A stretch of DNA of 64,000 bases from Rhyzopertha dominica (taxonomy: Eukaryota > Arthropoda > Insecta > Coleoptera > Bostrichidae): contig QCXZ01000003.1 in NCBI GenBank assembly GCA_025024175.1, positions 14,543,621 through 14,607,620 on the forward strand, in the 5' to 3' direction. The position numbers and the translations under genes were made by a program. The notes beneath the pieces are model-generated. The model made no database searches, was not told the origin of the DNA, and saw nothing but the letters and a program-made list of their open reading frames with translations. Shown here piece by piece: positions 8,961 through 64,000 of the stretch (the stretch's first letter is position 1; every line of letters starts with the position of its first letter).

Positions 8961-8967
8961 CTGTCCA

Positions 8968-31958: not shown

Positions 31959-31972
31959 TACCTCCTTCCTTA
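31959..31972 (-). other. Polypurine tract
   Basis: Immediately inside the 3' LTR the minus strand is AAGGAAGGAGG followed by TA, the expected plus-strand primer of an LTR element. Confidence 0.75.
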
Positions 31973-32075
31973 AATAATTGTACATATTTACAATATCATG
32001 AAATCTATTTACAATATCATGAGATATCTTAACATTTTTGACAAAAAATATTCTGTATAACAATATCATAAATAG

Positions 32076-33401: not shown

Positions 33402-35407
33402 CGGTAACGCGATAAAATATCAGCCTGATTGTTTTTAGAACTCACATACTGGATATCGAAATCAAATGCTGAAAGAATATGGGCCCATCTTTGAAGCCTA
33501 TTTGCCGCAAAAATTGGCAAACCTTTTTTAGATCCGAATATTGCCAATAACGGTTTATGGTCCGTTATTAACAAAAACTTTTTTCCGTACAAATATTGAT
33601 AAAATTTCTTTATGCCATAAATAATTGCAGCTGCTTCTTTTTCAATTTGAGAAAACTGACGTTCCGATTTGTTTAAAATTCGAGAGGCAAACGCTATTGG
33701 TTTTTCTATATTTTTCTGATATACGTGACTAATCACCGCGCCAATACCATATTCACTCGCATCTACTGTTAGTTTTATTACTGTGTTTGGATCATAATAC
33801 GCTAGAACAGGGGGTGCACAAAGTGATTGTTTAATTTTATCGAATGACTCTTGACATTTGTGGGTCCATTGCCACTCGGCATTTTTCTGCAATAATTCAT
33901 ATAAGGGCCTTAAAGTTAGAGAAGCATTTTGCAAGAACTTGTAATAAAAATTAACAGAACCAAGGAAAGATTTTAATGTAATTTTACCTTTCCTAAATGT
34001 GCCCAATTTTACTTCAAAAATTTCATTGTATTTTGCACACAAATCATTTATATCTGACACCGATAGATTATTTAATTGACCGTCTAACTGATGGCTAACT
34101 TTTCCTATTCCTAAATTTAACATTTTTAAACCATTGCGGCCTATCAATGGAGGTCCGCCGTTTTTTATGACGTACGTTTTCAAAACATGAGGTATATGTT
34201 CATACAGTATATTTAATTTTAAATAACCAATCGGCTTTAAGGCTACTCCTATATAGTCTTTTAGAAATAAGTCATTTTCGAACAATTGTTTTTGTTGAAA
34301 ATACCGAAAATACAATTTTTCTGATATGGCTGCGTGAGCAAAACCCGAATCAGCTTGAAAACTGATCGGTATGTTTTCAGCCATTACTTTCACGTATGTC
34401 GGTTTAACATTATCATCATCCGCATACAAAGTTTCAATACTGAAAACATTATCATCGCCGTTTGATGAGCTATCAGAAAAATTGTGCTCGGTTAAAAAAT
34501 TGTTACTCCTATTAACTATAGCACCGCACACCGGAGCCAAATGCCCCTTTTTTCCGCACTTATGACATGAATAATTACGATAACGGCATTCGCCACTTCT
34601 ATGATTTTTCCGACCACAACATTTACACTTACTGTTGCTCCCTTCTGTTGATCTCGAAGAACCTGCGCTCTCGATGTGTTTAGTCTGTCCCTGCCGTTTC
34701 CTTGACGCTGACATCGGCCTTGTTGGGGTTGCTCGAGGTCTAGGGGTCGAACCTGGACGCTTTGTTTTGAAGTAACCACTGCTGCCATCGCCCTCTGTAG
34801 CGGCTGTAACATCACGTTCCCTCAAAGCGGACTCCTTTGCCATTGCGATTTTACACAATTTGGGTAACGTAACCGTGGAATCTGCTGCATTTTCTTCAAA
34901 CAATCGTTCCATGATTGGACCTTGACCCATTCCAACCACAAAGACATCTCGCATTACAATTTTTAATTCGCTTCCAAATCCACAGGTGCTTGCTAGAGTT
35001 TTTACTCGCGCGGACCATTCCGCTATTGTTTCTTGTGGCTCCTTTTTAGCAAAATAGAATTTCAGGCGTTCCGAAAAGTATGACTTTACGGGTTTAAAGT
35101 GTTCTTCTAAAATCTCCACTAATTCCTTGTACGTTTTAGTGTCGGGTAACTCCGGTACACAAAGGTTGCGTAATAGTATGTACGTCTCTTCGCTTAACGT
35201 ATTTAATAAAATAGCTTTTTTCCGTCCTTCATCCGTGATACCATTCGCGATGAAGAATTGTTGAAGTCTTTCTCGGAAAACTACAAAATCCGAGACTTTG
35301 TAATTGAATAAGTTTAACGTACCCAGAAGTCCCGCCGAAGTAACTTCCGGTTGTGGCAATTTGACCTCTGGTTGTGGCATTTTGGCCCCAAATGTGTATT
35401 TTGACAC
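33284..35407 (-). CDS. Gypsy Gag-protease-(RT-deleted)-RNase H polyprotein, 707 codons
   Basis: One uninterrupted frame. Residues 1-250 are a Gag capsid-like region. About 259-295 hold two zinc knuckles (CKCCGRKNHRSGEC and CHKCGKKGHLAPVC). The protease has its catalytic DSG near residue 352 (QADSGFAHAAIS). Around residue 474 the text passes from the segment normally upstream of the reverse transcriptase (EIFEVKLGTFRKGK) straight to its thumb (LKSFLGSVNFYYKFL), so the palm with the YxDD aspartates, roughly 250 residues by family comparison, is absent without loss of frame. RNase H (TVDASEYGIGAV, TDHKPL, NNQADILSR) follows. The frame leaves its natural course near 33403, probably by loss of one base, and ends with about 40 foreign residues. 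The ATG at 35407 lies just after the primer site. Confidence 0.88.
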   Translation of the reverse strand: MSKYTFGAKMPQPEVKLPQPEVTSAGLLGTLNLFNYKVSDFVVFRERLQQFFIANGITDEGRKKAILLNTLSEETYILLRNLCVPELPDTKTYKELVEILEEHFKPVKSYFSERLKFYFAKKEPQETIAEWSARVKTLASTCGFGSELKIVMRDVFVVGMGQGPIMERLFEENAADSTVTLPKLCKIAMAKESALRERDVTAATEGDGSSGYFKTKRPGSTPRPRATPTRPMSASRKRQGQTKHIESAGSSRSTEGSNSKCKCCGRKNHRSGECRYRNYSCHKCGKKGHLAPVCGAIVNRSNNFLTEHNFSDSSSNGDDNVFSIETLYADDDNVKPTYVKVMAENIPISFQADSGFAHAAISEKLYFRYFQQKQLFENDLFLKDYIGVALKPIGYLKLNILYEHIPHVLKTYVIKNGGPPLIGRNGLKMLNLGIGKVSHQLDGQLNNLSVSDINDLCAKYNEIFEVKLGTFRKGKITLKSFLGSVNFYYKFLQNASLTLRPLYELLQKNAEWQWTHKCQESFDKIKQSLCAPPVLAYYDPNTVIKLTVDASEYGIGAVISHVYQKNIEKPIAFASRILNKSERQFSQIEKEAAAIIYGIKKFYQYLYGKKFLLITDHKPLLAIFGSKKGLPIFAANRLQRWAHILSAFDFDIQYVSSKNNQADILSRYRWKLKKNAKVRLLIWIIFVNRIFRSILSKFERNHLKIRF

Positions 35408-35427
35408 ATTGCACAGTCTACAAGATA

Positions 35428-35440
35428 ATCCTCGTCGCCA
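35428..35440 (-). other. Primer-binding site, tRNA-Ser(GCU) type
   Basis: One base inside the 5' LTR the minus strand reads TGGCGACGAGGAT. This is complementary to the CCA-tailed 3' end of a typical eukaryotic serine-GCU tRNA, recalled from family knowledge. It would prime minus-strand DNA synthesis. Confidence 0.75.
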
Positions 35441-35441
35441 C

Positions 35442-35645
35442 TGTTACGTTTTGCGTAATAAAACACTTTCTAAACTTTAGATATATATTAACTGAACGAA
35501 TAATCCATAAATACATGCGGTACTGAGCATCGCAAAACCCGAAGTGGCCATTTCTAACTAAATATAGAACTCTTATAAAAAGTTATCATCCTCGGGTTTT
35601 TCGCTGCTGTATAGCAACCTTGCTAGGTACTCGTACGATACAACA
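35442..35645 (-). repeat. 5' LTR of gypsy element
   Basis: 204 bp, TG...CA. It is the transcription-initiating LTR in the element's orientation, reading away from the cuticular protein gene that starts 0.5 kb to its right. Its outer boundary touches the TTTAT target duplication at 35646-35650. Confidence 0.92.
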
Positions 35646-35650
35646 TTTAT
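35646..35650. repeat. Target-site duplication, right
   Basis: TTTAT, identical to 31750-31754. Confidence 0.9.
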
Positions 35651-36178: not shown

Positions 36179-36214
36179 ATGTTCTTCGCGGGAGGCGCTC
36201 TGATGCTCGTACAG
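36179..36214 (+). CDS. Cuticular protein exon 1 (start codon)
   Basis: Twelve codons, MFFAGGALMLVQ, ending in phase 0 at CAG|GTGAGT. The ATG has A at -3 and is the first ATG in a frame that is open upstream. Confidence 0.82.
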
Positions 36215-39200
36215 GTGAGTTATTCTCGCGTTCGTGTATTGTGTATTGTTTGGAGTAGCCCAAGAGGCGGTCTTGTGAATGGAGATGATTGTTTTACATA
36301 CACTGATATACTAATTGGGATTTCTTTGTTAATTTAAATTGGAGCTTCGACCCAGAAAAATAATTTGTAACAAATTCAATGATACTTTTACAGAACCTAA
36401 ACGTCACCTATATTGTGACTATATTAAATTTTCACAGTTTACAACAATAAGTAGTGCTTATCAAATTTAGCCATCCTCTTATTGTTTTTTGGAGAAAAAA
36501 ATGCTATGCTTTTTATTTTTGGTTTATCGAGAAAAATATTCTTTATAAAAAGTTTTACGTGGTCTCAAATGCAAATCATAAAAACACTTGCCCAAAAGTA
36601 GAATATTTCAATTTTTTAGTACTNGTGGTTTATGTGNAGAAAAATTGTTTTGTACAAAAATATATTCAGATATGCAATGTGATCCATCCAGCTCAAAATT
36701 AGCTGGTTCGCTTAGTTTTTAGACATTTAGACATTATTAAAGGTCTTCAATAAGTATAAGGCTTGCTTATTTTGTACATTTGATTTCATTAAGAATCAAG
36801 AAATATTTAACAATATTTATTTTTAAAATAAAAATAGGTATATAAATATAATAAGTAGTAACAAACATTACTTTTTCTTCATTTACTTATCGTTTAACGC
36901 ATCCATCTCTTAATACGCTCTTGCTCTTATTCCTTGAATGCTTCAAATAACCCAAAAAAAATCAAGTGGGGTCAAACCTGGAGATCTAGCTGGGTCAAAC
37001 ATTAATATTAACATCAAGACAATAACTTAATTAGTTTTGTAAAAACTGTAAATAGCGATTTGCTTTAAACGATTCACGAAAAAAGAAAGGTCCAACAATT
37101 CTGTTTTTATAAATGCCACACCACACATTCTGTTTAAAAGCATATCGGCCCTTGGATTTAATGTAAAATGGGAATTTCATTACTCCATCGACGACAGTTT
37201 TGCGATGAAACTGTCCCATTTAATGTAAATATTACTTCATCCGTACAAAAAAGCGCCTTATCAGAAACCGATAAACTTTTAACACTCTTTTGGACATCAC
37301 AAAAGAATTCATAAGGTATATCCTCATCTCCTGGTTTTAAAGGTTCTCAGTTAGTTAAATTTCCTTGGGAAGATTTTCTTTATTCGTAAATACAACAAAA
37401 ATATAGCCTTGTAATCTTTTCAAAAAAGAGTGAACAGATAAAAGTATGGTAATTTTCTCCGAGTAATACCTCATTTGATCCTTTTCAAATACAACTAAAG
37501 AAATGTAATCAGTTTCCTTGTTCAGCTTTTGTTAAATAATGGCAAAACTAAAGAGCTACAAATCTAATAAATACGCGTGGCAGTTGGTACAGTCAAACGA
37601 TTGCTATAGCAACTTCTTGCATTTGTCACAGTTTTGTATTAGTAGGACTCTTGGGTTGGAAACCCTGTATACGAGGTATAGTGGCAGAGGAAACGTCTAC
37701 ATTCACTACATGCATCATAAGGCTGAACGAACTGAGGACCCTCAATGTGCGAATGAATGTCGGTTTATATGGGCGATAAAATAAAATAAAAAACTTTGTT
37801 TTCTTAATTATGTCTATAACAAATACAAAACATATAGCGTCACCCAGTATGGTAACCCTTTACGTGCTTACCAATGTTATTATGTTCGACAGTTGTGCTA
37901 GCAGGAACACCTGTTTGATTTAACATAGCTGAACCGAACTGAACTTGGTTATATAGACGAGTAGTATACCTATTAGATGAATTTTATATTATATTTACAC
38001 GAAAGTTGTCTGTCAANGCTTTATAGAGAATATTTTTTTGACAGAAGTAAGCAGATTTAAGTAAACTTATGTTTGCACAAAATTGCATAGTACGGAGACC
38101 ATCGGTCTTGATAATAACAATTTTTAAGCCATTATTTATTATAATTTGCAATTTGGTACGCTGACATTGTTTATTTGGATTATTAAAGTATTAAAATTAT
38201 AATTAGTGTTGATCCATTGGAATAACAATTGATTTAATATTTTTTAATTGCTCATTTAAAATTTTCACGCCAGTGGATAAAAGAGGATTCAGTATAATAT
38301 TTATTAGCCATCTTATTTGCCACGAAAAAGGCAACATTGGTAAGAGTCGATTAATTTAATATTTTCCAAAATGGTGATCTTGTTAACCGATAGTAGTTCA
38401 TACAAAAAATTCATTACCAAATATGAAAATAAATAGAGATGATATAAAAATAGCTTCATTATATACAATGGTAAGTTTATATAGAAATGGTAATTACATA
38501 ATTATTCATTGTCACACACACAATCCTATATCTATAAAGAAGTTTATGAATACCTGAATTTGGTATTATTTTTCGACGTTATACTATTTAGTAAGGTATT
38601 GTAAGTAAATCAAGTCGCTGTTTATTGTTATGAGATCTCTCACAAGATTCATCCTTGCGTGAGCAAAAAACGAGTGTAATAAATCTATATTGTAGTTAAC
38701 TGCACGATTTGTATCTGTTTACGTAGTTATGAAATTCACCAAAAGATTTATAGTTCCTGTTTTTATTAATAATAAAAATGTATTTGCCCGACATCGTTTA
38801 GTTTAGTTATAAAGTTAAAGATTATTCTTAAAACTATCTTCTTTTGATACACCAAGACATTGAGTTTCATGAATCCCTAAAATTTATTTTGACTTCAAAG
38901 TAACATACTCACTGCTTTTAGAATTGATTCTATTTTTATACTATAGCATTGAAGGTTTTTAATCTAACAGAACCAGATAATCATAATTACACAATTTACC
39001 ATTTCTTTGAACAGTGTAATGCTGACAGATGGCATTGCCATCCTAAATTCTTACTTTCATCATACCATTGCTTTGGTATATAAGCAAAACCAGTTCTGTG
39101 CCGTGTTGTCTACACTAGACCTAAATTCACTGATGAGCTGTAATGACAGCGAAATAGTACTATCTGCAGTTGGTTGAGGTGTAGACAGCACAGCATAGAC

Positions 39201-40941
39201 ATGCATTTTAGTGTCATTACTTGTTTAAGAAATCTCATATTGTCCTGCTATAAGGCAATATACAGACGTACCAAGAAAGAAAGTTTGAATAGCAACACTT
39301 TATTTCATAGATTTCAGTGCAACTTAAACAAACATGTTGCCGTCTCTTTGTAAGGTGTGACTAAATGGTACAAAGCGTTACCTACCCCTTATCTCTCAAC
39401 AATGTAGCTTTTTCAGAAATAATATAAAATGTTCGCCAAATATCAAAATGTATTGTCCTCAAATACAGTTCTTTATTAGTATTCTTTGTTATGTACAGAT
39501 GTTATCTAAAATACACGCAACATATTTAAGTTTAGATAATGTGGCGGGCAATATATCTATCCATTTGTCTGAGTACCGCCGACTGTAGCGGTTTTGAATA
39601 TTATTTAATAAAATACATGATGGAGCATCGTCGTTCATAAACAGGATTTTTTCCACAGTGGGCTAAAATAATATNGCAGAAACAACAAATATTTTTTAAG
39701 CACGTATCTATAAGATTATTACCACATACTATATATATATGTGGATGGTGGTGTACCGTTTCTAGATACAAAAGTAATACGGCAAAATAATAAGATTGTC
39801 TTAGATTGGTATCAAAAACCCACCTCTTCAGGCAGATATATAAATTTTTTGTCAAATCACTCAATTAAAATTAAAATTAACTTTATTAGGCAAATGAAAC
39901 ACAGAATTAAAAAAATCTCACATCCAAATTACATAAATAAGAATTTACAAAAATTAAAAATTATGTTACTTCAAAATTCTTACCCGCAAACTTTGATAAA
40001 CAAAATTTTATTTTCTACTATTGATTACTTACAAAACGATTGTGCGATTAATCAACAAAATTTAAATTCGGTGAATGTTTTAGACAGAGTGGAGCAGCAA
40101 GAAAACCATGATTCTCAAAGTAATCATAATTCAGAAGTATCTCGGTTTGGATCTCTTCAAAATATTACAGGTTTGGCAACAAAATTAATTAGAAGTTTTC
40201 AAAATGAGGGTATAAAAATAGCATTAAAAAATTTTAAAAAGGGTTCAAATTTATTTAGCAAATTGAAATCAAAAATTTCATTACAATATCAATCGAATGT
40301 TGTTTATTCTTTAAAATGTGATACTTGTGAAAAAATTTATGTGGGACAGACATCGCAGTGGCTATCCAGTAGGATAGCACTGCATAAAAGTGATATTAGA
40401 AAAGATAGAGATCGATGTTCATTAGGAGAACACGTAATTAGAAATAATCACATAATAAATTGGGAAGAAGTCAAAATTTTAGAAAAAGAGAATGTTACAA
40501 ATAAACTTTTGATTTTAGAAATGTACCAAATTAATAAAAGTGCTAACACAATAAATAAAAAATCGGATACACAAAATTTGAGTAATATTTACACATATTT
40601 ATTATCAGAAGAAATATTAAAATCATAGTAAATCGGCAGGTATAAATTTATGAAAAATGTGGTGGCTATGTTGCAACTTTCATATTTTGTCATTAATCAA
40701 ATCTGTAATGAAACTTCAAATTCAATCAAATTATATAAGTTATGCAAGATTTGGAAGATAAAATTGGCCCCTTTTATAAACCTCAATTTCAGTAAGGTTA
40801 CGAGTTACATGTAGTTTTAGGTACATACTGTTATAAATGTTGTAGAAGCCCTGAAGAAGATTTAAAATAAAATCGAAAGCTTGGCAAAGAAAAAAGAGTT
40901 TACATAATTTCAACAAAAGTCGAATTCCCCTTAAACCGAAG

Positions 40942-43900: not shown

Positions 43901-46900
43901 AATCAGGTCGCTAGACCCATTTAATCTATCCGTACAGTTGAAATTTTTATATCCCGTCCTACGCTGTCAGATAAGGAATTCCTGGTATATGCTAGTTAAA
44001 TTAACTAATCTACCAAGTTAATCTCTTAAATGACCGTCTCTTTTTAGGTGTCTCTGGTACTTTTATTGATATTACTTTCAATCGAAGGAAAGCCGCCGCC
44101 TGGATACCAGAAACCGTTAGAAGAGATAGATAAGGTAAGATGCATTTACTATTACTATTATTTAGACGTAAACTATGTGTAGTTCACATTAAAATAAATA
44201 GCACAAAACTGATTCTTATCTACATATTCTACCGTCACGCAAGTATAAATTATGGAGTTGTATTAAAGTAATAAGGGTTTCTCAAATATAGAAACCCATC
44301 TTACTAACCACTTTGTCGTATTTCTGACAAATAGACGTAAGTGCCCTAGCTCTATAAATAATACCAATTTTTTTTTCAGAAAATTGACTGAATCGAAGCA
44401 CTCACAAAGTATTAAGTATATCATTTTGATTACTTTTGCAGCCTTTACAGAGATAAAACCTCTAAAAATTGCTTAGCATACCTTGCGCATAATTTTTTAT
44501 AGTAAATAAAAAAATTAGTAAGGAAGCGAGACAATTAAACGTGCCAAACTGACAAAAGCCTCTCTCAGAAAATGATTGAAAGCTCAAACCTTTCAAATAT
44601 AGAAGAATCATTTCCCACCATTTCCGACCACAAGGTACCAAGGTTGTACCATTTATCCAAAATCTGCAAGACGAATGTTCCTTCAGACCAATAGTAAATA
44701 TGATTGACTCACTTATAAGTATATTTTATGTATGTTATCAAATGATTTTTTTCTGTCAAAACTTGATATTTTAGTTTAACAAGGTTTGTTTATTTACAAA
44801 AGTACACATACTTGATGCTATTGATATATTTTCCGTAGGTGACACAATATCCAAATTATCCGAGCACTGTTTAAAATCTATTTACTTAAATAGTGGTCTT
44901 TACGAACAAAAATTACGTTGTGTATAGGGTTTACTTTTAAATCCTATAGTAGCTGGCTACCTTGTTAATGAAAGGTTTGAAGGATGTGGCGATTAATAGT
45001 TATCAATCTTTTAGGTTGTTTTTAAACAATAGATTGCAACTAAGTGTAATTTTGATTTGTAATACTAAATTATACGAAGGAACGTAAACCACTAAAATTA
45101 CACGGTAACACTCAATGTTCAGAGCAAAATTATAGTATAACACAATATTTTGAGTGTTACTGTGTATGTTTGATGGTTTACATACCTTTGTATTATTAAG
45201 TAAGTATTACAAACCGAAATTGCATTAAGTTGCAATCTATTGTTGAAAGACAATCTAAAATAAGTGCTTAAAGTTTATACGTTTCTCTCTCATTATAATA
45301 AGAACATCCAGGGATCTAGCACGTTACATCTTCTGGTACAACATGTAAATTGTAATGCTCTGCACACGCACTTATTGTAGGTTAAGCTTTTCAGCAATAC
45401 CTACATTGCAACTAGATGTAATTTACGTTTGTAATACTTGCTAAGTAAAGCGAAGGAATGTCAGCTACTCAAACATACACAGTAACACTTTAAAATATTC
45501 TTTTAACACTAAAAATTGCACCAAACACTTAACTACTTTTTGCACGTTATGACAACTTGGTTTGTTTTGATCCAGGATCTAAACTAAATGTAATTTCGGT
45601 TTGTAATACTTGTGAAGCAAAACGAAGGAGTGTAAGCTACTCAAATAAGCACAGTAACACTTCTAGATATTCTTTTAAAGTCACAAAATTGCACCTAACA
45701 CTGAGGTCCGTTACGCACGTTATGACAACTCGCTTTGTCAGGATCCAGGACTTTGACGTACCACAGAAAAATGGCCATCATTACGTCAGCACTAATATAT
45801 CGTATAGGGACCGGTCAAAAAAAACATATACATACTACTTAGTTGCAATAATGGGATTAGGTCTTCAGTAGACAACGTTAGGTGATATTTGTAAGGCTAT
45901 TTTGTAAGCTTTTATAAGCATCAAGTAGTTTGTTTCGATTTGGGTATTTACTTTTTAGACAAGGCCGTGAGTTTGATAAAGGTTGTAGGTGTAATAAATA
46001 GGTAAGTTAAATATGACTAAAATTAAATTAATGTGGGTACTGCAGATTAATATGATGGATGAATAGTAATATATCCTTTACACTTCTCCATAATTCACTA
46101 AATGGCAAAATCGTTACATTGTGAGATAATTCCTTGAAAAGTATTGGTCCATAATAGTAATTAATACAATTTTTATTTTTTCGCAAGTATTATAAGTATG
46201 CAAGTTTTTTACTTGTTTATAATTGTGAATATAACGTATAATGTATAAAAGATTCTGAATTTATGTCTTACTTCATCGTGGTACTACACCAACCACTCGC
46301 AAAGCTTTGCTTTGTAGATGAAAAATCAGACTTGCAACAGGAACATGTCCCCAACACAAGATTTCATAGGACGCGTAAGACATTACTAATGCACGAAATG
46401 CGGCCTTCAGTAGGTACTACCTGTGGAACTACTTATTAAAGACAGCGTAACAAAAATATGTTCTTAATCTTCTGTATTTTTCAATGTAAGTCAAGTAGAT
46501 CTGTTTTCGTGCAACTTCTCACACCTAAATGTAAAGTCAAATATATTTTTAAGGTTCTTGCCTGTATTACAGAGAAAATTTTGATAGACGTTGTAATAAT
46601 CACCCTAGATAAAGGAGTCCATAACTAAACGTTATTCATAATAATTACTCTGAACTATTAAACTGCATTCTGTAACAAACAGTCAATATTTTTGATACAC
46701 CTGTATGTGAAATAAAAAGTGAAAACTAAATAATTGCGAAAGCTGGACATTTGAATATTTAAACATTCGAATCGCCAACCTAGACAGCTTAAAAACGAAC
46801 TTGTTTATATTATGCTGACAATGTTTTCAATTCTGTTCAAAAAGTAGAAAACGAAATATTTTGTGACATAATGATGACTTCCAACCCTCTTAAGCGAATA

Positions 46901-49900: not shown

Positions 49901-52900
49901 ATCCTCATCTTTTGAGATAATGGCAGTTTCCTTGAATGGAAGTTTGACTTTAGATAAACATTGTAAAGTTTTATACATAACTGTCAACATAATTATTTTC
50001 TTTTAAAAAGGTCTTCATTAAGCAACTTATGCAAACTAAACGTGATACTATCTATTTTTGTTTTTTGAAAAAATTGATAGTTCTAATAGCACATCAGGTT
50101 AGTAAAACTGTGTACCATTATAAATGTTCGGGATCATTTGTTTTGCTTTTTCTTTTCCTTCATAAGCTAATACACGTAACCGATTTTAGTAAACCAGTAC
50201 TTGAGGTTTATGCTACAAAACTTGTACTCCTACTAAGTGTTGTATTCAAGATTACACGTTTTATTTTAAAATTTTCTAAAATTCTCGATAATAGAGTAGC
50301 AGCTAAAAACTAACACCTGCAATGCATTACAAAATTATGTAGAACATACCATGTACCCCTCACTCCTTTACATGTTTGAATTGTGCAATATAAAAGTAGG
50401 GGGAGTTTTGCATATGATAAACGTATACGTCCAGAATAAATTTCATCTTAGTTGCTCGCCTGCTTTATTGACCTTAGTATCCGTTTTGTCTGTATTTTGT
50501 ATACAAGCCACTTAAATTTGCACGGGCTGTAAATATCGACGGTACAATTATCGAATATCTAGCCACTTTAGCAAACCATTTTCAATCCTATCTACGTGAC
50601 AAATGGGCATCAATTCTAAATTGGCACCGCAGAGAATTGCATCCACGTTTTAACAAATTGAGGTAGTGAAAGGTACTTCCTCTTGTATAATACCTTACTG
50701 TGATTTTTTATGCGGTTTGTTATTGGTAACAGTGTTACAGATCGCTTGAAACTCTTTTGAAACATGGTTTATAGGGGTTTATTCACCCGAAACTGTCAAG
50801 AGTAAATGCTAATTCTAGACCATTATTTGCAGGATCCACCCAAGTATGAATACGGCTACAGTATCGCAGATGAGAAGGGAACCGGTCAAGGAAAATTAGA
50901 ATCAAGGGATGGAGAACACGCTCAAGGAAGGTATGAGTATAGACAAAAGCACACTTCATTTATAATTTGACGGCTTCCTCTGTGGTCGGAGCAGAAGAAA
51001 AGTGATCCGCAGTTCAATTAGCATAACATGGTGGCAAATGGCACACATAGCGAGCCACTCACACCTGAAGGCTGGCTAAGTAATGAGCGCTAATTTGAGA
51101 AAAAAGAGAACGTTGCGTTCAGCAATCAACGCATAAATGCAATAAAAAAACAGAGTTCTGACATGGGTTTCAATACCGTTGCGAACGAGCCGCTGTATAA
51201 AACCCAGCAAGGTATTAAAGGAGGATGTGTCATTTATATAACGTTTTCGCACATACATATATACTTGATATAATACAAGTGTTTTCATGTTAACGTAAAA
51301 TATATTTAATAATTACGATAAGTGTGCCACCTTTCGCTTGTGCTCTAAAATACTTTGAAGCTAGGATTTTTTCGTCCTCGTTCTCAGGCCGTAGGGATCG
51401 TGGAAGTCAAACATTACGCTGATTTTGTCAGCATGTATGTAATTTAACCTCAGGAATAATTTGCTGTGAGTTCCTTTTTTTTCTTTACACGGTCGCCATC
51501 TTTCGCATCTCAACGTCCATAATCTCATGTCCTCCCAATGTCCTTCCTCTTAAGTCAATCGCATCATGTTCCAGATAGCCTATTTCGCTTTCGTCGTATC
51601 GCTGGCGTCCACTTATACATTCTTTTTGGCCATCGGCTTTCATCCGTTCGTCAAAAGTGACCGTTCCAGCTAAGTATTTTGCTATCTATGGGATGGTATA
51701 GTCCTTCTTTCACCTATAATCTCTCGTATTCTATCAATTATATTATGCTCCAGTCTGGAGATATGGCAGTTTTTAATAGAACATATTTCAAGGAACAGCA
51801 ACCTACATTTCTCTTTTTTTATTTAGCTCCCACGTTTACTTGCCATACATGGTTATACCTTTTTCTCTTGCAGAAGTTTTATTTGACATTTTACAAAAAC
51901 TCGCACCTATATCCAAGTTTTCTTGTTCGTCTACACCCACTACCTTATCTCCTACTACATATTAGGACCTCGTTATCAGCAAAACTAAAGTGTGTATTAT
52001 TTTCTGCCCCGCAGTGGTATTCCCATTCTATGACCTTCCAACTTTTCAGGACTTGTTCCAAATACACTATAAACAATGTTGGCGATAGTGAGTATCCTTG
52101 TCTTAGTGCCTTGTTAACAGGGAGTTCTTAAGAAGTGACGTTTCATACTTTTACTAGGCTACTGCAGGTTTCATACAATTTCATTATTGTTTCCCACAAC
52201 TTATCATCTACCTTCTACAGATCAACGAATGTTAAGTGAACCATCTTTCCTCTCCAGTTCTTTTCAATCAAGTGTTTAAGCGGAAATTTACCATCAATGC
52301 AATATCCTCTGCAGCCATTTTGCTCTTCAGTTTTGTGTTTTATTACTTTACCACTCAATTAGGCTACTGTAGGAATGATGCAGGCAAGCCGACTTCCTTT
52401 TTTAAATAACCGTGGAATAGTTGCTGTTTCCGTTAACTCGTAGGTGCCACCTCATTCAGACATGCATGTAATATTACTCCCAAAATATCTAGAACTATTA
52501 ACTTCTCTCGAGTTCATTATAGATTGTTCTTGAGTTCGCGTGGAGTTACTGTGGTTGTTTTTTGAATCTACCAAGAATTGTACTCTATTTTCCGTTGAAA
52601 GATTTGTGCAATACGTTTTCCATTTTTCTATAGTGATAAGGCTCATACCTTGGATGTCTCTATGTTGTGTTCGCATTCCTTTTAAGCACCCTCCACGACT
52701 TATTTGCTTTTTGTACCCTTTTCCTTTTATCTATATAATTTAATCTATCTTGAGTTTTTGCGCGCCAAACCATTTCTTATAAGCAGCCTTCTTCATCTAT
52801 TATCTGTCCCAATCCTTCATTCCAACATGGTGTATCTTTCCGATATCTTTTAAAAACTATTTATTATCTCTTTTGTGGCTTAACACGCTTTCTCCTTTCA

Positions 52901-55900
52901 TATTTTGCACCTGGGTGTTCTTTTGTTATGCAGGAACTTTGTTGAACCGTTCTTCAAGCTCTTAACATTTTACTTGATACTATTTACAGTAGCCTCGATT
53001 ACATCAGCTGGTCTGCCACGGTGTAGATGCTGTTTATATGGAAAATACATTTTGGCTATCACTAAAAAAAATGATTTGAGGCATATTACGATCCCCGTAT
53101 AACTCTAACATGTGATACGTTTAGTCCGGTCTTTTTCCTAAGAACAAAATAATAGATTGGGGTGGGTTGCTATTGCGAACATGTATATTTATGGATATCG
53201 TTGTGATGAAACCATCCATTTGCCATCATAAGTGTTTGTGTTCACATAAATGAATTTGTATCACTTCCGATGAACGTCGTTTAATTTCTTTTCCTGTTCT
53301 GCCATTTATATCTGCAATCAACAACACATTCCACCGATTTCCAACCTTTTCTAAGGTTGTCTTTAAATCGGGAGAGAAGTCAGAAGTCCTGGCATTGGTT
53401 GTTGGAGCTATAGCCACCAAGAAATCGTCACTCACGTCGATGTCCACTTGTAGAAGTCGAGGGGTAATTTGATCCCANGATTTCTATATTTTATACGTCT
53501 TTTTAANCGCTAGAGAAACCTCTCCTTGGGCTCGCCCTTCTTTTGGTACACCGCTGTATACATGCAGCCATTTTTCCTGTTTTTTTTTTACTTCTTATTG
53601 GTCTCTGTGAGAGTGACTATGTCAATTTTAAGCCCTTCCAATTCATTGAATAGTCGCTAACCATCGTACATTCCGCATTGGTAATGTCCATTTCTATAGT
53701 TTCTTCTTCAATCCCGAAACCTAGAGGACCAGGTAATTTTCTGTCAGAGTTTATTACCCTTAAGAACTTTTTTTCACGAGGAAAAGGAAACCAGTCTTCT
53801 GAACTTCCCTTAGACTAATGTGGAAAGTGCCTGGGTCGAGGATTTAAAAAAATGATGTATCATACTAAAAGAGACTTGTAATATAAACGTATTATNTAAA
53901 TTAAAACTTAAAACANTATTTATAATAAAGAATTAAATGCTCTTGTAGAAAACCATCAGGAAAGGCTAGGGTGCATTCTCATGTCGCGCTGTCGGCATTG
54001 TGCACGTTACCTTCTTTAGCTTTGGAGTAGTTCACAAGTATTTCGGCCACCCTCTTTAATTTTTTATTATTATTATTTAGAAAATTTGGAATGACCTTTC
54101 CTTAACTTATCGTCGTTGCAGGTACTTCGTTCAAGGGGCCTCATCCAATCAAAACGTCGAATACATCGCTGATGATTGGGGATTTCATCCGCTGGTAGAG
54201 TACAGCAACGTCGAACCCCACAGTCGTGTTAGAACAGAACTAGCAATCGGAGAAGAAGCCGTAAACGCCTTACGTCAAAGCAAACAGGTAATGCTCTTAT
54301 CGATTTAATTCAGCTTCTGCTCCTAGTATATAACTTTACCTTCCGTAGATGCAGTTTAATCCAGAGCAAGGCAATACGGAGTCTTCCCAGTTACTGAAGC
54401 AACCAACGGACCCCGACGGCGAAAATTCAGTAGTTGCTAGCACGACCGTATCACCTGTGCCTATTGCTCCAACTACTGAGATCAGTGACACTTCGGCGCA
54501 AACGTTGGGTCCCAATTTTGAAAATAAGGATGAAGGGCTTCCACAGACTACAGAAATTCCCATGCAGGATAAGATTTCAAGTAGTGATGGAGTTTTTGTG
54601 CAACAGTTACCCTTTGAAGGAGTCATCCAACGGTTTCTGGACGATCAAAATTCTATACAACAAAATGTAGGTTCAGAAGATCAACAAAGCGAACCTCCGA
54701 GCAAGTCTAACATTTTCATTATCGAGCGGCCTCAGTTAGTAAGTTTCCACAACCCAATGGATTTGGCTGGACTTGTTGAGAGTCATATACACCAAATTCA
54801 AAATGACCAAAGGAAGGAGTCAGCAAAAAATACTGGAAGAAATGACGATTTTGATGAAGGAATTTTACGACAACAAGTAGCAGGTAGCTTTGGTTCAAAA
54901 TTAAGCGCTCCAGGTCATGCCACAGGAAGACCTCTGCATACACAGGAAATTCGCCCTCGTACACGCAAACCATCAAGACTTGTAGAGAATACCAGTAAGT
55001 TAATTTCTGGACAGGACGTTTTAAACATAAACGACGCAATCGGTAAAGCTGCTGAAGATACAGCAGTGGCATCAGCAACACCGTCGTTACTAAAAGTAAC
55101 TGAACAGAATTTTGCATCGACGGATGTTTCTCTAAGTCAGATTAATGTGGTGGAATTAGACAGAGTGCAATCTACTACTCCTGCAAGTATTACTTCCACG
55201 GTACAGCCAATGCAACTATCAAAACAGCCAATTATTGTGGAAGAATATGAAGACGGACAGGTTACTTCTGAAATTAATCAAGTTACGGAGAATGTACAAG
55301 GATCTACTGTAGAAAACATAATAAGCGAAGACAGTCAAGCTATCCAATCTGAAACAGACTCTTCTTCAGTTTTAGTAACCCCACGTCCTGTGAGCGCCAA
55401 CTTTTTAGCGCCTATAACAGCAGGTATACGATTACAGCATATAGAACAAAACCAGCCGGAGATGCCTAAAAGAACACAAACTAAAGAAAAATATCTTGTA
55501 GAAATTCAGAAAACTCTCCCGTACTACATTGGGAAGCTAGAATACATGGAAAACGAAGCTGATGATATTAGTCTTCAACCTGATGGGAACAGCACCAATA
55601 AGGAAGCAGAGAAGACTGCAGTCGCGCATTTGGAATTGGGAGCGGCACTGATGAATTTCCCAGTGCCGTCAATACCAAATGGGAGACCTGAATTTGTGCA
55701 ACAACTTCCACTAGAGCATAGAAAACAAGTTTTCGCCGATACCCAGGATTATCAACAACTAAATGATATTAATGTACAACAATTACCGTCTACTAGTATC
55801 AACACGAAGTTTGCTGAATATGATCAGCAGCAAGCTCAAGGAGAACAAATTCAAGTACCTATACAACAAGGTGCTGCTGCAATAGTAGAAAAAGTTAAAC

Positions 55901-56892
55901 CTGTACCGCAGCCACTTGTTCAAGTGGACGTAACCAAAGCAATACCTCAGTACATAACAGCACCAAATCAATTGCACATTCCCATTCAGGTCCCGTACAG
56001 TGTTGATAAGAACGTTCCAATAACCGTCACTTTGGAAAAGGTGATTGAAAAGCCTGTTCCTGTGCAGGTAGATAAAATAATAGAGAAGCCGGTTAGAGTA
56101 CCATATGAAGTAACCAAGTATGTGGATCGACCGTATCCAGTACAGTTTACTGTACCCCAACCGTACCCAGTGGAAGTACGTGTACCAATACCATTCCCTG
56201 TGCATGTGCCACAGCCAGCGCCAGCAAACAAAAAAGTTCCTGTTCCTCAATTCATCGAGAAGCCTTCTCATGTGGAAAGGCCATTCGTACAATACATAGA
56301 TAAACCCCATCCCTTACCGGCAAAGGCACCTTTATCTGTACAACCGTATTACATTCAGGTGCCGTTTATACAAAGGGCAAACACTGCAGCAACCTACACC
56401 TTGCCATATCCAAATTATGTAAGCGTATACTTCCAGCAACATTTCCCTTCGAATCCAAAGACGCCACAAGCTCAACAATTGCGCGCCCCTCACTACAAAC
56501 CGCAACAATTACTGCCAGTCAATGACCAAAAGCCTGTTGATACGAAACAAACTTTGTACCAGTATTCCTATTCGCCTCCAAATGGCTTGCGCGGCTACTT
56601 ACCGCCTCCAGGTTCACCTAAACCTGCTTACGATCAAGAATCAGCGCAAAGTTTCTTGCAAGGGCAGTTCGCTTTCGGTGGAAATAGCTATGGTGGATTG
56701 TTACCTCCTAAAGCTCAGAGCTACCGAAGTGGAGGTCAGCAAACACGCAATCAGCAGCATTTCGGTAGGTTAAGGAGTGCTCGATCGAATCTTAAAAACC
56801 CAAGACTCGAATATGGCTTCTTGCCACCAATGATTCCATCTCTACAGATAGATGAGAATGGAAATCCAATTGAGAAGGACGAACAGAGGTAG
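36179..56892 (+). CDS. Cuticular protein, Rebers-Riddiford (CPR) family, 976 residues, five exons
   Basis: Joining 36179-36214, 44048-44134, 50833-50930, 54122-54287 and 54349-56892 gives one open frame with GT-AG introns throughout (7833, 6698, 3191 and 61 bp). Residues 1-27 form a signal peptide (hydrophobic core VSLVLLLILLS), so the protein should be secreted by epidermal cells. Residues 42-101 form the chitin_bind_4 domain: KYEYGYSIADEKG ... G.RYFVQG ... VEYIADDWGFHP, with the aromatic residues that contact chitin. The 847-residue tail is encoded by one exon. It is rich in Q, P and V, repeats FVQQLP, has a Pro-Val block at about 673-803 (PVPVQV, YPVEVRVP) and ends with LPP motifs. It is much longer than typical CPR proteins (100-300 residues). 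I infer a matrix protein with a long flexible region. The subfamily and symbol are not certain. Confidence 0.9.
36880..37530 (-). mobile_element. Mariner-like (DUF4817-type) transposase remnant in intron 1
   Basis: On the minus strand, blocks read CTDEVIFTLNGTVSSQNCRRW (about 37265-37205, first catalytic acid region), NVWCGIYKNRIVGPFFF and KANRYLQFLQN (about 37135-37030), and, after a deletion, DPARSPGLTPLDFFW (about 37000-36955). The HDGAP block with the second acid is missing. CCCTGTATA at about 37662-37670 may belong to its upstream terminal repeat, but no partner was found. It is inside intron 1, opposite to the host gene. Confidence 0.65.
37535..39090. other. Intron 1 sequence, nothing recognised
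   Basis: AT-rich intron DNA. The frame at 37539-37784 has no known domain. Confidence 0.5.
39103..39191 (+). ncRNA. Hammerhead ribozyme (type I-like, complete core)
   Basis: Stem I distal part: 39103-39115 pairs with 39179-39191 over 13 bp including one G-U. An asymmetric internal region (39116-39129 with 39165-39178) leads to the core CUGAUGA at 39130-39136. Stem II is GCUGU/ACAGC (39137-39141, 39146-39150) with loop AAUG. GAAA follows at 39151-39154. Stem III AUA/UAU closes GUAC, and the cleavage triplet AUC ends at 39164. Every invariant hammerhead nucleotide is present, so self-cleavage between 39164 and 39165 is predicted. It lies in intron 1 on the gene's sense strand. A diverged relative is at 63240-63330. 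Such ribozymes are known from insect satellites, retrozymes and Penelope-like elements. Confidence 0.82.
39741..40628 (+). CDS. PLE reverse-transcriptase C-terminus and GIY-YIG endonuclease, 295 codons
   Basis: One open frame. It opens with GVPFLDTKVI followed by WYQKPTSSGRYINFLSNHS, the end of a PLE reverse transcriptase, then a lysine-rich linker. From residue about 187, VVYSLKCDTCEKIYVGQTSQ with R and H further on (LSSRIALHKSDIR) is the GIY-YIG nuclease with the CxxC typical of PLE versions. The tail EEVKILEKENVTNKLLILE is also usual. The GTG at 39741 is not a real start, since the frame enters from the truncated 5' side. The lack of stops over 888 bp suggests a younger insertion than the other copies. 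Function is lost because RT is missing. Confidence 0.82.
   Translation: MDGGVPFLDTKVIRQNNKIVLDWYQKPTSSGRYINFLSNHSIKIKINFIRQMKHRIKKISHPNYINKNLQKLKIMLLQNSYPQTLINKILFSTIDYLQNDCAINQQNLNSVNVLDRVEQQENHDSQSNHNSEVSRFGSLQNITGLATKLIRSFQNEGIKIALKNFKKGSNLFSKLKSKISLQYQSNVVYSLKCDTCEKIYVGQTSQWLSSRIALHKSDIRKDRDRCSLGEHVIRNNHIINWEEVKILEKENVTNKLLILEMYQINKSANTINKKSDTQNLSNIYTYLLSEEILKS
40848..40885 (+). ncRNA. Hammerhead-like fold at PLE 3' end
   Basis: Stem I GCC/GGC, core CUGAAGA (matches CUGANGA), stem II GAUUU/AAAUC with loop AAAAUA, GAAA, a minimal helix III (A-GC-U) and U before stem I. This follows the minimal PLE hammerhead pattern with an intact core, but stem I is only 3 bp, so activity alone is doubtful. 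PLE hammerheads of this kind are thought to work as dimers. Confidence 0.45.
40944..40997. repeat. (TA)n microsatellite
   Basis: About 27 TA units interrupted once by TG near 40981. Confidence 0.95.
41000..44047. other. Rest of intron 1, nothing recognised
   Basis: AT-rich intron DNA. Frames at 41296-41643 and 42996-43274 are hydrophobic or low-complexity and lack recognisable motifs. Confidence 0.45.
44048..44134 (+). CDS. Cuticular protein exon 2
   Basis: Twenty-nine codons between a pyrimidine-rich acceptor (CTCTTTTTAG) and donor AAG|GTAAGA. It completes the signal peptide and the short pre-domain segment KPPPGYQKPLEEIDK. Phase 0 on both sides. Confidence 0.88.
44575..44985 (+). pseudogene. 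Penelope-like reverse-transcriptase fragment in intron 2
   Basis: The frames read PRLYHLSKICKTNVP (about 44637-44680), then FRPIVNMIDSL, then after a gap FTKVHILDAIDIFSV, LSEHCLKSIYLNSGLYEQKL and LLNPIVAGYLVNERFEG (to about 44985). This is the PLE RT order: LYGLPKIHK, RPIVN, SLFTNVP, ...YEQ.dGvAMGSPLSP..A..yme.FE. The catalytic and conserved sites are eroded by stops and shifts. It is a different part of the element from the copy at 39741, so it is an independent insertion. Confidence 0.65.
45026..45243. repeat. Inverted pair of a short repeat family
   Basis: Arms 45026-45115 and 45150-45243 are diverged inverted copies (start ACAATAGATTGCAACT, end near CACTCAA) around a 34-bp loop. Each arm also aligns to the tandem units at 45405-45757 (TTTGTAATACT..., CGAAGGA..GT, ACAGTAACACT). 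No coding sequence. Confidence 0.7.
45405..45757 (+). repeat. Tandem duplication of a 172-173 bp repeat unit
   Basis: Unit 1 (45405-45576) and unit 2 (45577-about 45757) share GTTTGTAATACTTG (45427 and 45599), CAGTAACACTT, ATATTCTTTTAA and GCACGTTATGACAACT (45542 and 45715), giving a constant spacing of 172-173 bp. With the inverted arms at 45026-45243, four diverged copies lie within 730 bp. Confidence 0.75.
45760..48520. other. Intron 2 sequence, nothing recognised
   Basis: AT-rich intron DNA. The minus-strand frame 47515-47748 (77 codons) has no known domain. A perfect B-box GGTTCGATTCC on the minus strand at about 47957-47967 has no A box. Confidence 0.45.
48521..48552 (+). repeat. Interstitial (TCAGG)n array
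   Basis: About six pentamers GGTCA (= TCAGG), the first two degenerate or with n. Flanked on both sides by AGGATCT.CT.CATC..TTTTCTTCT.GTA. (about 48490-48520 and 48551-48580), so the array sits between direct repeats. Confidence 0.8.
48585..49617. other. Intron 2 sequence, nothing recognised
   Basis: AT-rich intron DNA. A near-palindrome of about 55 bp (TGCTTTTTTCAAAATT with AATTTGAAAAAGCA) lies at 49540-49596. Confidence 0.45.
49618..49731. repeat. Foldback repeat, 43-bp arms
   Basis: Arms 49618-49660 and 49689-49731 are inverted copies with three mismatches (outer ends TTGAATAAAAA, inner ends CTAGATGA) around a 28-bp AT-rich loop. It resembles a small MITE or hairpin element. No clear target duplication. 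Confidence 0.7.
50833..50930 (+). CDS. Cuticular protein exon 3 (first half of chitin-binding domain)
   Basis: 98 nt between TTTGCAG and AG|GTATGAG, encoding DPPKYEYGYSIADEKGTGQG through HAQG and two bases of the next arginine codon (phase 2 exit). CPR genes often split the RR domain by an intron. Confidence 0.92.
51440..53720 (-). mobile_element. APE-type non-LTR retrotransposon (LINE), degenerate, in intron 3
   Basis: On the minus strand from right to left: apurinic-type endonuclease pieces (GLKIDIVTLTETNKK near 53600, HVYSGVPKEGRAQGEVSLA near 53540, ADINGRTG near 53300), a linker (ITIEKWKTYCTNLSTENRVQF, about 52660-52560), reverse-transcriptase blocks (KMVHLTFVDL near 52230, LRQGYSLSPTLF near 52100-52070), and FADN at 51983-51972 in place of the catalytic FADD. 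A C-terminal YKWTPATRRKRNR region near 51620-51570 is normal for such elements. Stops and shifts occur throughout. At about 2.3 kb it is shorter than an intact copy. It sits antisense inside intron 3. Confidence 0.75.
54122..54287 (+). CDS. Cuticular protein exon 4 (second half of chitin-binding domain)
   Basis: 166 nt between GTTGCAG and CAG|GTAATG. It finishes the arginine codon and encodes YFVQGASSNQNVEYIADDWG and FHPLVEYSN, the most conserved part of the RR consensus, then an acidic linker. Confidence 0.93.
54349..56892 (+). CDS. Cuticular protein exon 5 (Q/P/V-rich tail)
   Basis: 847 codons plus TAG after a 61-bp intron ending CTTCCGTAG. An alternative AG five bases downstream would delete the first two codons in frame. 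The exon has no stop over 2.5 kb in AT-rich DNA and shows clear compositional bias (Gln, Pro, Val, Thr, Ser), both signs of selection. Large minus-strand open frames at 55783-56310 are shadows of the Pro-Val repeats. Confidence 0.92.
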   Translation: MQFNPEQGNTESSQLLKQPTDPDGENSVVASTTVSPVPIAPTTEISDTSAQTLGPNFENKDEGLPQTTEIPMQDKISSSDGVFVQQLPFEGVIQRFLDDQNSIQQNVGSEDQQSEPPSKSNIFIIERPQLVSFHNPMDLAGLVESHIHQIQNDQRKESAKNTGRNDDFDEGILRQQVAGSFGSKLSAPGHATGRPLHTQEIRPRTRKPSRLVENTSKLISGQDVLNINDAIGKAAEDTAVASATPSLLKVTEQNFASTDVSLSQINVVELDRVQSTTPASITSTVQPMQLSKQPIIVEEYEDGQVTSEINQVTENVQGSTVENIISEDSQAIQSETDSSSVLVTPRPVSANFLAPITAGIRLQHIEQNQPEMPKRTQTKEKYLVEIQKTLPYYIGKLEYMENEADDISLQPDGNSTNKEAEKTAVAHLELGAALMNFPVPSIPNGRPEFVQQLPLEHRKQVFADTQDYQQLNDINVQQLPSTSINTKFAEYDQQQAQGEQIQVPIQQGAAAIVEKVKPVPQPLVQVDVTKAIPQYITAPNQLHIPIQVPYSVDKNVPITVTLEKVIEKPVPVQVDKIIEKPVRVPYEVTKYVDRPYPVQFTVPQPYPVEVRVPIPFPVHVPQPAPANKKVPVPQFIEKPSHVERPFVQYIDKPHPLPAKAPLSVQPYYIQVPFIQRANTAATYTLPYPNYVSVYFQQHFPSNPKTPQAQQLRAPHYKPQQLLPVNDQKPVDTKQTLYQYSYSPPNGLRGYLPPPGSPKPAYDQESAQSFLQGQFAFGGNSYGGLLPPKAQSYRSGGQQTRNQQHFGRLRSARSNLKNPRLEYGFLPPMIPSLQIDENGNPIEKDEQR

Positions 56893-61694: not shown

Positions 61695-63230
61695 ATTAGC
61701 TATGAAAAAGAATTGGCAACTACTAAACAATTAACCTTTAACAACGGATACAGTACAAAAATTATGGACCGAAAATTTAAAGAACATGTATTCACTAAGT
61801 AAATTATTACAACTAAATTTCACAACCTCCGTAAAAATGAGGGGCGTGGATATAAAAACTCTGCACACCTAAGCTCCGTATAACTTTCATGATCTTTCAA
61901 AGTGATGTTATGGTCGAACCAATCGTTTATTCAATCTGTGAACAATGTAGGGTTATTTTTAACATATTGTAGTTCCTTTTAAAATTAAGAAGCCAACGTG
62001 GTTTTCGGTGTGACCGGCAGTGCTCTTCTTCTGGAAATCTTTTTACGTACGCAGCTTTCATTTTCTATACCTTGTCATTAAAAATAAATAAGTCGAGCTA
62101 TCCATTTTACAGTTACATGTGAATTAGCCTGAACGCTTTTTTGCAAGTCGCGTCGTAAGTTTTAAACGCATTATAAGCACCCCTTAAAGCTGATAAATTT
62201 CTCAAAATTTAAGATGACCCATTTTATAACCAATATACTTGGATTTACTTATATCCAATTTTATCAACCTAGTTGTTGACTTTGGCGATATCTTAGAATA
62301 AAAGGTTATCGTATTTTATAGAATGAATAACCCATGTGTAGCTAATAATCTATCTGAGTACCAAACCAGCTAAGTAGTTGGCATATAATCGTAAATCCTT
62401 AACACTTTCTTTCTCCTAATGCCTTCAAATGAATATTTTTCAACATATTTTCAGATTAACTGTCAAAAACAGATCAATTCATCATTCTTACTTTCTGAGA
62501 ACCTAATTTAGTGTAACAAGTGTGCTCGTTAAAATTATTCAGACGCATGCAAATTCTAATAAGTCTACCGCATTCAAGTTTTTTTTGAATTCTCATCGGA
62601 GAAAGTAAAAACAACGCAACGCGCTCCAACAGCAAACAATGCGCAAAACTTATAACCTTTGACAACAATTTTCATTTGTTTGGTTCCACTGATAGCAAAA
62701 GATATTGCTACAACATTACGCATAATAGACATGCTTGACTGAAGTAATTAGACGCGTGCTAGATGCTACAGGTAGCTTATAGAACCGGTTACGTAGGTCT
62801 GTAATCAGTTCCACTGCCATGGTCGGATTCCTCATAATGAACGTGAATTTAAGAGTGCGTCTAACAGCTGGCACTCTTTCACCGCTAGCCTGCGGCTATA
62901 AAAGTTATGTGAATCAGATATGTTTAAAACCTGGCGTTAGGCATTTACTAATCAAATGGATTTTCTCATAACCAATAGTTTCGTTTATCTTGAAAATATT
63001 CATAGGCAACAGGCTTTTTACTTTCATTCGAAGCTTCAAGACCAGTTAGCTATTGATATTCTCGAAATTATACGTAGTTGTTATCAGGACTAAATTTGAA
63101 TAGCTAAACCATATTTTTCTCATTAATTTGACCATATGCCCATGCCGACTGCAACCAACATCATAATTTCTTTACATGTATATTCGAAAAGTTTTTAAAT
63201 CGCCTATCTTGGCGTATATGAGGAAAGCAA
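61695..63230. other. No gene recognised
   Basis: AT-rich sequence. CTATAAAAG at about 62896-62904, preceded by GC-rich DNA, looks like a TATA box, but no transcript can be placed downstream. Confidence 0.4.
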
Positions 63231-63239
63231 GATCTGTGC

Positions 63240-63330
63240 CGTGTTGTTTGCGTTGGGACTATAGCAGTGCTGAGGAGGCTTTATAAGCCGGAAGCAGCTA
63301 TCCATAGATTGTTTTGACGCAGACAACATG
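63240..63330 (+). ncRNA. Hammerhead ribozyme relative, core damaged
   Basis: Same architecture as 39103-39191. Distal stem I 63240-63254 with 63316-63330 (15 bp, G-U pairs included), core CUGAGGA (63270-63276, fits CUGANGA), stem II GGCUU/AAGCC with loop UAU (63277-63289), and the AUC cleavage triplet at 63300-63302. GAAA has become GGAA at 63290-63293, and stem III is poor, so cleavage is unlikely. Compared with the other copy, three stem II pairs and three stem I pairs changed on both strands. The upstream TCTGTGCCGTGTTGT is also shared, so the two are copies of one repeat. Confidence 0.65.
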
Positions 63331-64000
63331 TTATAGACGTAATTTTGTTATTAAAAGAATATCAACTTCACTGTATCGAATTCCGCGGACGCATATATTT
63401 GTATCTAGCGTAGCATATCGCANGACGACGACTACCGAAACCGCCTTGTAGATGACTGCNGCCTNTTTCGGACAGGTAAATGACGATTCGTATTGCACCC
63501 TAAGCTCGTGTTATAATTTTTAATTTATGTAGTATAAGGGCAAAACTGTAAAACGTCAACATCAATCCTAAGCACAGTACATGGAATAAAAAACATATCA
63601 AATAAATAATTTTCTTTAATATTTTACAAATAATTTAAGACGCTAGTATATAGTCTATGCTTAGGTTTTTACTACACAATTATAATTAGTAAATATTATG
63701 AAATGAAGTAACTTAGGAAAAAAGCATATATTATGAAACATTAACTAATTCCAGGTAAAACTAAGATTTTGTTACTATAATTTGTGTTACTATTTTGGAA
63801 TTACTTTATTAATTGCTATGGGTTACGAAAATCTTGACAGAATATAATAATACTAATAGTTTTCTTAACCAGTAGACACTGCGAGTTTGAATGATTACAA
63901 ATGACGAGGGCGTTAGCCATAATTTGATTTGTTATGACACAGGTTACTATAATATACTTTAACCCACGTGTATATACAAAGCCTTATCTACATCTGTCCG
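63331..64000. other. No gene recognised
   Basis: AT-rich end of the window, with a few n's around 63423-63466. Confidence 0.5.

What the first reader, a model, noticed from the sequence alone, without database searches (positions are those of the whole stretch)
39103..39191. Complete hammerhead ribozyme in intron 1 of a cuticular protein gene
All invariant core nucleotides (CUGAUGA, GAAA, AUC cleavage triplet), three helices and an extended stem I are visible. It lies on the sense strand of the host gene, so a cleaving intronic RNA would be transcribed with it. It also has a dispersed relative, so it belongs to a mobile or satellite-like family, perhaps a retrozyme-type RNA. The fold is read directly; activity and mobility are inference.
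Basis: partly seen in the sequence, partly recalled or inferred. Interest (0 to 1): 0.85.

Follow-up and report, generated by a model that had tools for sequence, protein, structure and literature searches.

The report
Hammerhead-ribozyme mobile RNA element in beetle
The finding is a truncated copy of a small mobile DNA element whose RNA can probably cut itself and close into a circle; its copies in this probable beetle genome suggest how such RNA circles are copied back into chromosomes.

Summary
The hammerhead motif is real and not chance. It is a 5'-truncated copy (about 39012-39210) of a repeat in a probable beetle genome. Full units are about 351 bp and occur in tandem. One search lists 40 long matches at 97-100%, the window copy included. 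Of 41 aligned copies, 37 keep the core and all three helices; the window copy does not, since its core-proximal helix I is damaged. It lies sense in intron 1 (inferred) of a cuticular-protein gene.

The relative near 63.2 kb belongs to a second, older family (unit about 325 bp) whose helices differ in sequence but pair equally well. Unit size, tandem copies, GC below 50%, type I ribozyme, target-site duplications and a strongly self-paired predicted circle fit the metazoan non-LTR retrozymes.

The new part is how copies insert. In family A, 40 of 40 insertions end at one point (site A); of 19 with an inverted arm, 15 start it at a second point (site B). Arms cross the unit joint, and four stop after about one turn. 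This fits reverse transcription of circular RNA from two preferred internal starts, using both target strands. Penelope-like elements here also stand head to head but insert at (TA)n, so the enzyme is unsettled.

The parts
39012..39210 (+). 5'-truncated copy of retrozyme family A (unit positions 149-347); the left boundary is uncertain by a few bases because of shared letters CAGTGT
   Evidence: BLAST of the region against fetched copies and against the unit (L001 +149>351; the last 4 letters there are flank that resembles the unit joint)
39095..39199 (+). Type I hammerhead with extended stem I (outer arms 39095-39116 and 39178-39199, one C.A mismatch)
39130..39164 (+). Catalytic core CTGATGA, helix II, GAAA, helix III, AUC triplet; predicted cleavage after 39164
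39076..39111 (+). 36-nt block with TATA-like GTATATAAG, 89% alike between families A and B
   Evidence: unit A 213-248 against unit B 187-222
63201..63351 (+). Copy of retrozyme family B (simple truncated form) with a damaged core: GGAAG where the consensus has GAAA
39741..40998 (+). 5'-truncated Penelope-like element: end of the reverse transcriptase, GIY-YIG domain, 3' part with (TA)n; separate insertion from the retrozyme
40851..40885 (+). Minimal hammerhead-like motif of the Penelope-like element (CTGAAGA...CGAAAGCTTGGC)
   Evidence: regex motif present in 12 of 12 fetched Penelope loci; no Rfam hammerhead match
36203..36214 (+). Inferred coding part of exon 1 of the cuticle gene (MLVQ, donor AG^GTGAGT; a longer start MFFAGGALMLVQ at 36179 is possible)
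44048..44134 (+). Exon 2 of the cuticle gene, rest of the signal peptide (VSLVLLLILLSIEGKPPPGYQKPLEEIDK)
50833..56892 (+). Further cuticle exons, about 50833-50930, 54108-54284 and 54349-56892
   Evidence: tblastn of beetle relatives, four of which carry PF00379

Best explanation
The feature is a truncated genomic copy of a metazoan-type (non-LTR) retrozyme, a non-autonomous retroelement of about 351 nt with a type I hammerhead. Shown by sequence: the ribozyme fold, two families whose helices differ yet pair, tandem units, truncation, target-site duplications, one fixed 3' end (site A, unit about 347) and a preferred start for inverted arms (site B, unit about 188-201). Inferred: tandem copies are transcribed; the hammerhead cuts the RNA into units of about 351 nt; a host ligase closes them; a reverse transcriptase primed by both cut target strands copies the circle from sites A and B; the two cDNAs join head to head, or only the site A arm remains as a truncated monomer. 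The intronic window copy is most likely a passive insertion and, with its damaged helix I, should cleave poorly.
For: 40 long matches at 97-100%; cleavage sites 352 and 351 nt apart in L009; core and three helices intact in 37 of 41 family A and 12 of 24 family B copies, with different paired sequences in the two families; TSDs of 8 or more bp in 19 of 39 insertions against 1.1% of 2000 mismatched flank pairs; right end at site A in 40 of 40 family A and 18 of 21 family B chains; inverted arms begin at site B in 15 of 19 and 9 of 13; arms that cross the unit joint and four arms of about one turn; circular fold -137.1 kcal/mol, z -8.2, 0 of 100 shuffles, GC 44%.
Against: No RNA data: neither cleavage nor circles nor expression were seen. 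Loci were chosen by match to the ribozyme half, so the end statistics are biased towards copies that hold it. A linear multimer could also give joint-crossing arms. Exceptions to the two sites are L021, L032 and two chains of L034 in A, and L056, L057, L059, L064 and L066 in B. The window copy shows only a 5-bp AGTGT repeat. Rfam is below threshold.
Confidence: 0.85

Rival explanations
1. The ribozyme is the hammerhead of a Penelope-like element (its pseudo-LTR), left beside the Penelope fragment 0.5 kb downstream.
For: Same strand, 0.5 kb apart; Penelope-like elements are known to carry type I hammerheads (PMC7761336).
Against: The retrozyme unit has no match in 11 of 12 Penelope loci; the only match is the window copy itself in L042. 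The Penelope copy starts at 39741 in mid reverse transcriptase, and the missing part was not found upstream by tblastn with 36 relatives. Each of the 12 Penelope loci has its own different minimal motif.
Confidence: 0.03
2. It is a conserved intronic ribozyme with a host function, as proposed for amniote HH9/HH10: it would cut the cuticle gene's first intron and affect mRNA maturation.
For: Sense strand of intron 1; best Rfam match is HH9.
Against: Many near-identical copies elsewhere with the boundaries of insertions; helix I damaged here although intact in 39 of 41 copies.
Confidence: 0.04
3. The retrozyme is real, but a LINE-type enzyme moves it, with ordinary twin priming on linear multimeric RNA; no circle is needed.
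For: TSDs of 8-14 bp and target motif A^G differ from the (TA)n ends of the window's Penelope family; twin priming is known for LINEs (recalled).
Against: Four inverted arms stop after about one full turn; inverted arms begin at one preferred place; 23 of 34 Penelope neighbour pairs in this genome are head to head and none tail to tail within 6 kb (one tail-to-tail pair within 10 kb, two within 20 kb).
Confidence: 0.4
4. Chance similarity to a hammerhead in a simple inverted repeat.
For: Rfam finds nothing at curated thresholds.
Against: Chance scan; helices that differ between families yet pair, and a core kept in most copies.
Confidence: 0.01

Closest known systems
Metazoan non-LTR retrozymes with type I hammerheads (Cervera and de la Pena 2020, PMC7229834; abstract, sections 13, 14 and 17 and passages read)
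   Same: Type I hammerhead, tandem units of 150-450 bp, GC below 50%, TSDs longer than 4 bp, strongly self-paired predicted circle, presence of Penelope-like elements in the same genome.
   Different: Two families in a probable beetle; insertion record with two preferred starts, head-to-head arms and arms of about one turn ('inverted' and 'truncat' do not occur in that paper's main text). Expression and circles not seen here.
Penelope-like elements and their minimal hammerheads (PMC11167929, passages; PMC7761336, passages)
   Same: Type I hammerhead; head-to-head copies; in the lizard element both target strands are extended and synthesis starts inside a stem-loop.
   Different: The retrozyme has a helix III and no coding sequence was matched; no shared sequence with the local Penelope family; targets are not (TA)n.
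Amniote intronic hammerhead HH9 (Rfam RF02275)
   Same: Best covariance-model match; same core and helix order.
   Different: 19.8-28.0 bits against a gathering score of 52; here a multi-copy mobile element.
Dolichopoda pDo500 satellite hammerhead (PMC2837043, passages)
   Same: Insect repeat with a hammerhead; a double-hammerhead form has been proposed there.
   Different: No sequence comparison was made here; this element is mostly dispersed with truncation and TSDs, not a long satellite array.

Membership tests
Metazoan non-LTR retrozyme | Type I hammerhead with intact core and helices | tested here: met
   37 of 41 family A and 12 of 24 family B copies; the window copy itself has helix I broken
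Metazoan non-LTR retrozyme | Tandem units of about 150-450 bp | tested here: met
   352 and 351 nt in L009; about 325 in L071. Tandem copies are a minority of fetched loci; the window copy is single
Metazoan non-LTR retrozyme | GC content below 50% | tested here: met
   43.9% for one unit of L009
Metazoan non-LTR retrozyme | Target-site duplications longer than 4 bp | tested here: met
   19 of 39 insertions with 8 or more bp against 1.1% in the control; not clear for the window copy
Metazoan non-LTR retrozyme | No LTR, primer-binding site or polypurine tract | not tested
   No dedicated search was made
Metazoan non-LTR retrozyme | Self-cleavage and circular RNA of 170-400 nt in tissue | not testable with these tools
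   Only predicted: unit 351 nt, circular fold z -8.2
Metazoan non-LTR retrozyme | Penelope-like elements in the same genome | tested here: met
   140 matches, some with open frames of 856 aa
Penelope-like element hammerhead | Located within a Penelope-like element | tested here: not met
   No match of the unit to Penelope sequence in 12 loci apart from the window copy itself
Penelope-like element hammerhead | Minimal motif lacking helix III | tested here: not met
   Helix III pairs are intact in 41 of 41 family A copies
Rfam Hammerhead_HH9 | Reaches the family's gathering score | tested here: not met
   19.8 bits and 28.0 bits against 52

The most novel reading that the evidence does not exclude
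Animal retrozyme RNA circles are reverse transcribed directly at the target by an enzyme, with a Penelope-type enzyme as leading candidate, that uses both cut strands as primers and starts at two preferred internal sites of the circle, the inverted arm running about one turn at most, which gives head-to-head insertions. The genome would then hold a fossil record of circular-RNA retrotransposition.
Probability: 0.4. Interest if true: 0.8.

Novelty: new member of a known kind. Interest (0 to 1): 0.6.

Why it matters
How animal retrozymes move is open: the 2020 paper proposes circular RNA templates and Penelope-like or LINE enzymes as candidates (PMC7229834, section 17). Here two families in one genome keep a record of insertions with preferred starts, joint-crossing arms and arms of about one turn. 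That makes the circular-template idea testable by counting junctions in any retrozyme-bearing genome and by an in vitro assay. In the held library, 'retrozyme' with 'twin priming' gave 0 papers, 'retrozyme' with 'beetle' 0, and 'retrozyme' with 'target-primed reverse transcription' 1 (PMC10886601, listing only). Subscription papers and preprints were not searched.

Tried and rejected
Rfam at gathering score gave nothing; the weak HH9 match is not taken as membership. Linking the ribozyme to the Penelope fragment was rejected. Exon 1: a first scan gave two implausible candidates, the next a count of one that was not printed, a looser one gave four rows, of which MLVQ and its longer form share one perfect donor. 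A strict scan that asked for contiguous core-proximal stem I pairs missed the site because of the helix damage. The automatic alignment A1 misplaces the core of the two window copies, so only its outer stem was read: of 25 pairs of the outer stem, 22 also pair in the second copy and 3 break. Rfam gave no hammerhead match for the family B window copy or for the Penelope motif. A transcription start at site B as the cause of copies that begin there was considered and not settled. One forward arm (L032, unit 302) begins exactly after the predicted cleavage point (unit 301), so a linear cleaved template is possible for some copies. The window copy's 5-bp AGTGT repeat is not used as a TSD.

Dropped rows and limits: L003, L007 and L008 were left out as the same places as L009 and L010. 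L026 and L027 carry the same flanks and are probably one duplicated event, counted twice. Inner end positions are BLAST boundaries, uncertain by a few bases. In one search the last 10 of 140 rows were left out as second pieces of copies already listed. All retrozyme loci are best matches to the ribozyme half: 41 and 53 matches listed, from 529 and 986 first-look candidates with 40 scored each. So copy numbers are lower bounds, and arms lacking the ribozyme were not sampled.

Full report
Observation. The sequence at 39095-39199 folds as a type I hammerhead with an exact core and a long extended stem I. The motif is beyond chance: one site in the window; 3 core-plus-helix hits in 100 Markov windows, none with a stem I run of 8 or more pairs. 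Rfam gives no match at its curated thresholds and a sub-threshold Hammerhead_HH9 match.

Gene context. The named relatives of the open frame at 54349-56892 are beetle proteins with the cuticle domain PF00379 (4 named of 17 hits). tblastn places exons at about 50833 and 54108. The signal-peptide exon is 44048-44134, and a first exon ending MLVQ^gtgagt at 36214 completes a signal peptide. The hammerhead is thus in intron 1, sense strand. The gene model is inferred.

A dispersed family. The window's genome (479 Mb, 138 contigs) lists 41 matches to the 129-bp ribozyme query, 40 of them long and at 97-100%, from 529 first-look candidates of which 40 were scored. I fetched 37 loci with flanks. L009 holds a tandem array with cleavage sites 352 and 351 nt apart. 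The window copy covers unit positions 149-347 (39012-39210). Family A copies differ from their consensus by 1.0% on average, the window copy by 1.6% (41 copies).

A second family. The relative near 63.2 kb leads to family B with a unit of about 325 bp. Its copies differ from consensus by 4.2% on average, the window copy by 9.4% (23 copies). Between the A and B units blastn at E 0.01 found only a 36-nt block with a TATA-like GTATATAAG. The hammerheads nevertheless keep the core while the helices change on both strands: CUGCA/UGCAG to CUGUG/CACAG, GCUGU/ACAGC to GGCUU/AAGCC, UAG/CUA to CAG/CUG. The extended stem pairs fully in both consensus sequences, 13 and 24 pairs. Core and all three helices are intact in 37 of 41 A and 12 of 24 B copies. 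Helix III and its loop are palindromic (AUAGUACUAU), so two RNAs could also pair as a double hammerhead; this is inference from the sequence and from the published weak helix III of type I motifs (PMC7761336, passage).

Retrotransposition. Of 39 insertions, 19 have TSDs of 8 or more bp, against 1.1% of 2000 mismatched flank pairs. A second, anchored scan lists 22 insertions with matches of 8-14 bp, with A before the nick in 19 of 21 and G after it in 13 of 22. Family A chains end at unit 344-351 in 40 of 40. Left ends are of two kinds: simple truncation (21, of which 7 begin at unit 186-207, around site B) or an inverted arm (19, of which 15 begin at unit 188-201). In family B 18 of 21 chains end at site A and 9 of 13 inverted arms begin at the corresponding place. 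Exceptions are L021, L032 and two L034 chains in A, and L056, L057, L059, L064 and L066 in B.

Circular template. Arms cross the joint between unit end and unit start, both inverted (for example L002, L010, L019, L026/L027, L032, L035, L060, L063) and forward (for example L009, L012, L034, L071, L073). Inverted arms of L010 (201 to 1, 351 to 205), L019 (200 to 1, 351 to 200), L060 (168 to 1, 323 to 149) and L063 (167 to 1, 323 to 161) stop about where they began. A linear single unit ending at site A cannot give this. A circle can, and so can a linear multimer for the crossing alone; a unit-length RNA opened at site B would also explain the stops. Folded as a circle, one real unit reaches -137.1 kcal/mol, z -8.2, 0 of 100 shuffles. 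In that fold site A lies at a hairpin loop (CAUGCAU-UUUA-AUGUAUG); near site B the sequence AUACC...GGUAU can form another small hairpin.

Who moves it. Penelope-like elements are abundant here: 140 matches listed from 10998 first-look candidates, some with open frames of 856 aa. Among 130 listed copies, 34 neighbour pairs lie within 6 kb: 23 head to head, 11 same strand, none tail to tail; within 10 and 20 kb there are 1 and 2 tail-to-tail pairs. A lizard Penelope enzyme extends both target strands and starts inside a stem-loop (PMC11167929, passages). This resembles the two-armed retrozyme insertions. Against it, the Penelope family in the window ends at (TA)n and shares no sequence with the retrozyme, while retrozyme targets read A^G. 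No LINE control could be run. I put about even odds on a Penelope-type against a LINE-type enzyme.

Verdict. The insertion record with two preferred starts and arms of about one turn is the part that I did not find described: 'inverted' and 'truncat' are absent from the main text of that paper, and the literature searches are.

Noticed in passing
40851-40885 (+): Minimal hammerhead-like motif (CTGAAGA...CGAAAGCTTGGC, with an extra A before helix II) in the 3' part of the Penelope-like element; found by pattern in 12 of 12 fetched Penelope loci, with a diverged version in L051; no Rfam hammerhead match.
   Followed up: partly
39076-39111 and 63214-63249: TATA-like block GTATATAAG kept between two otherwise dissimilar retrozyme families, upstream of the ribozyme; perhaps a promoter.
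   Followed up: no
Genome G000, Penelope copies listed: Head-to-head excess among Penelope-like neighbours: 23 of 34 pairs within 6 kb, no tail-to-tail pair.
   Followed up: partly
8267-8993 (-): Broken pieces of a second, diverged Penelope-like element.
   Followed up: no
31755-35646 (-): LTR retrotransposon with 205-bp terminal repeats, 99% alike, with integrase and RNase H domains.
   Followed up: no
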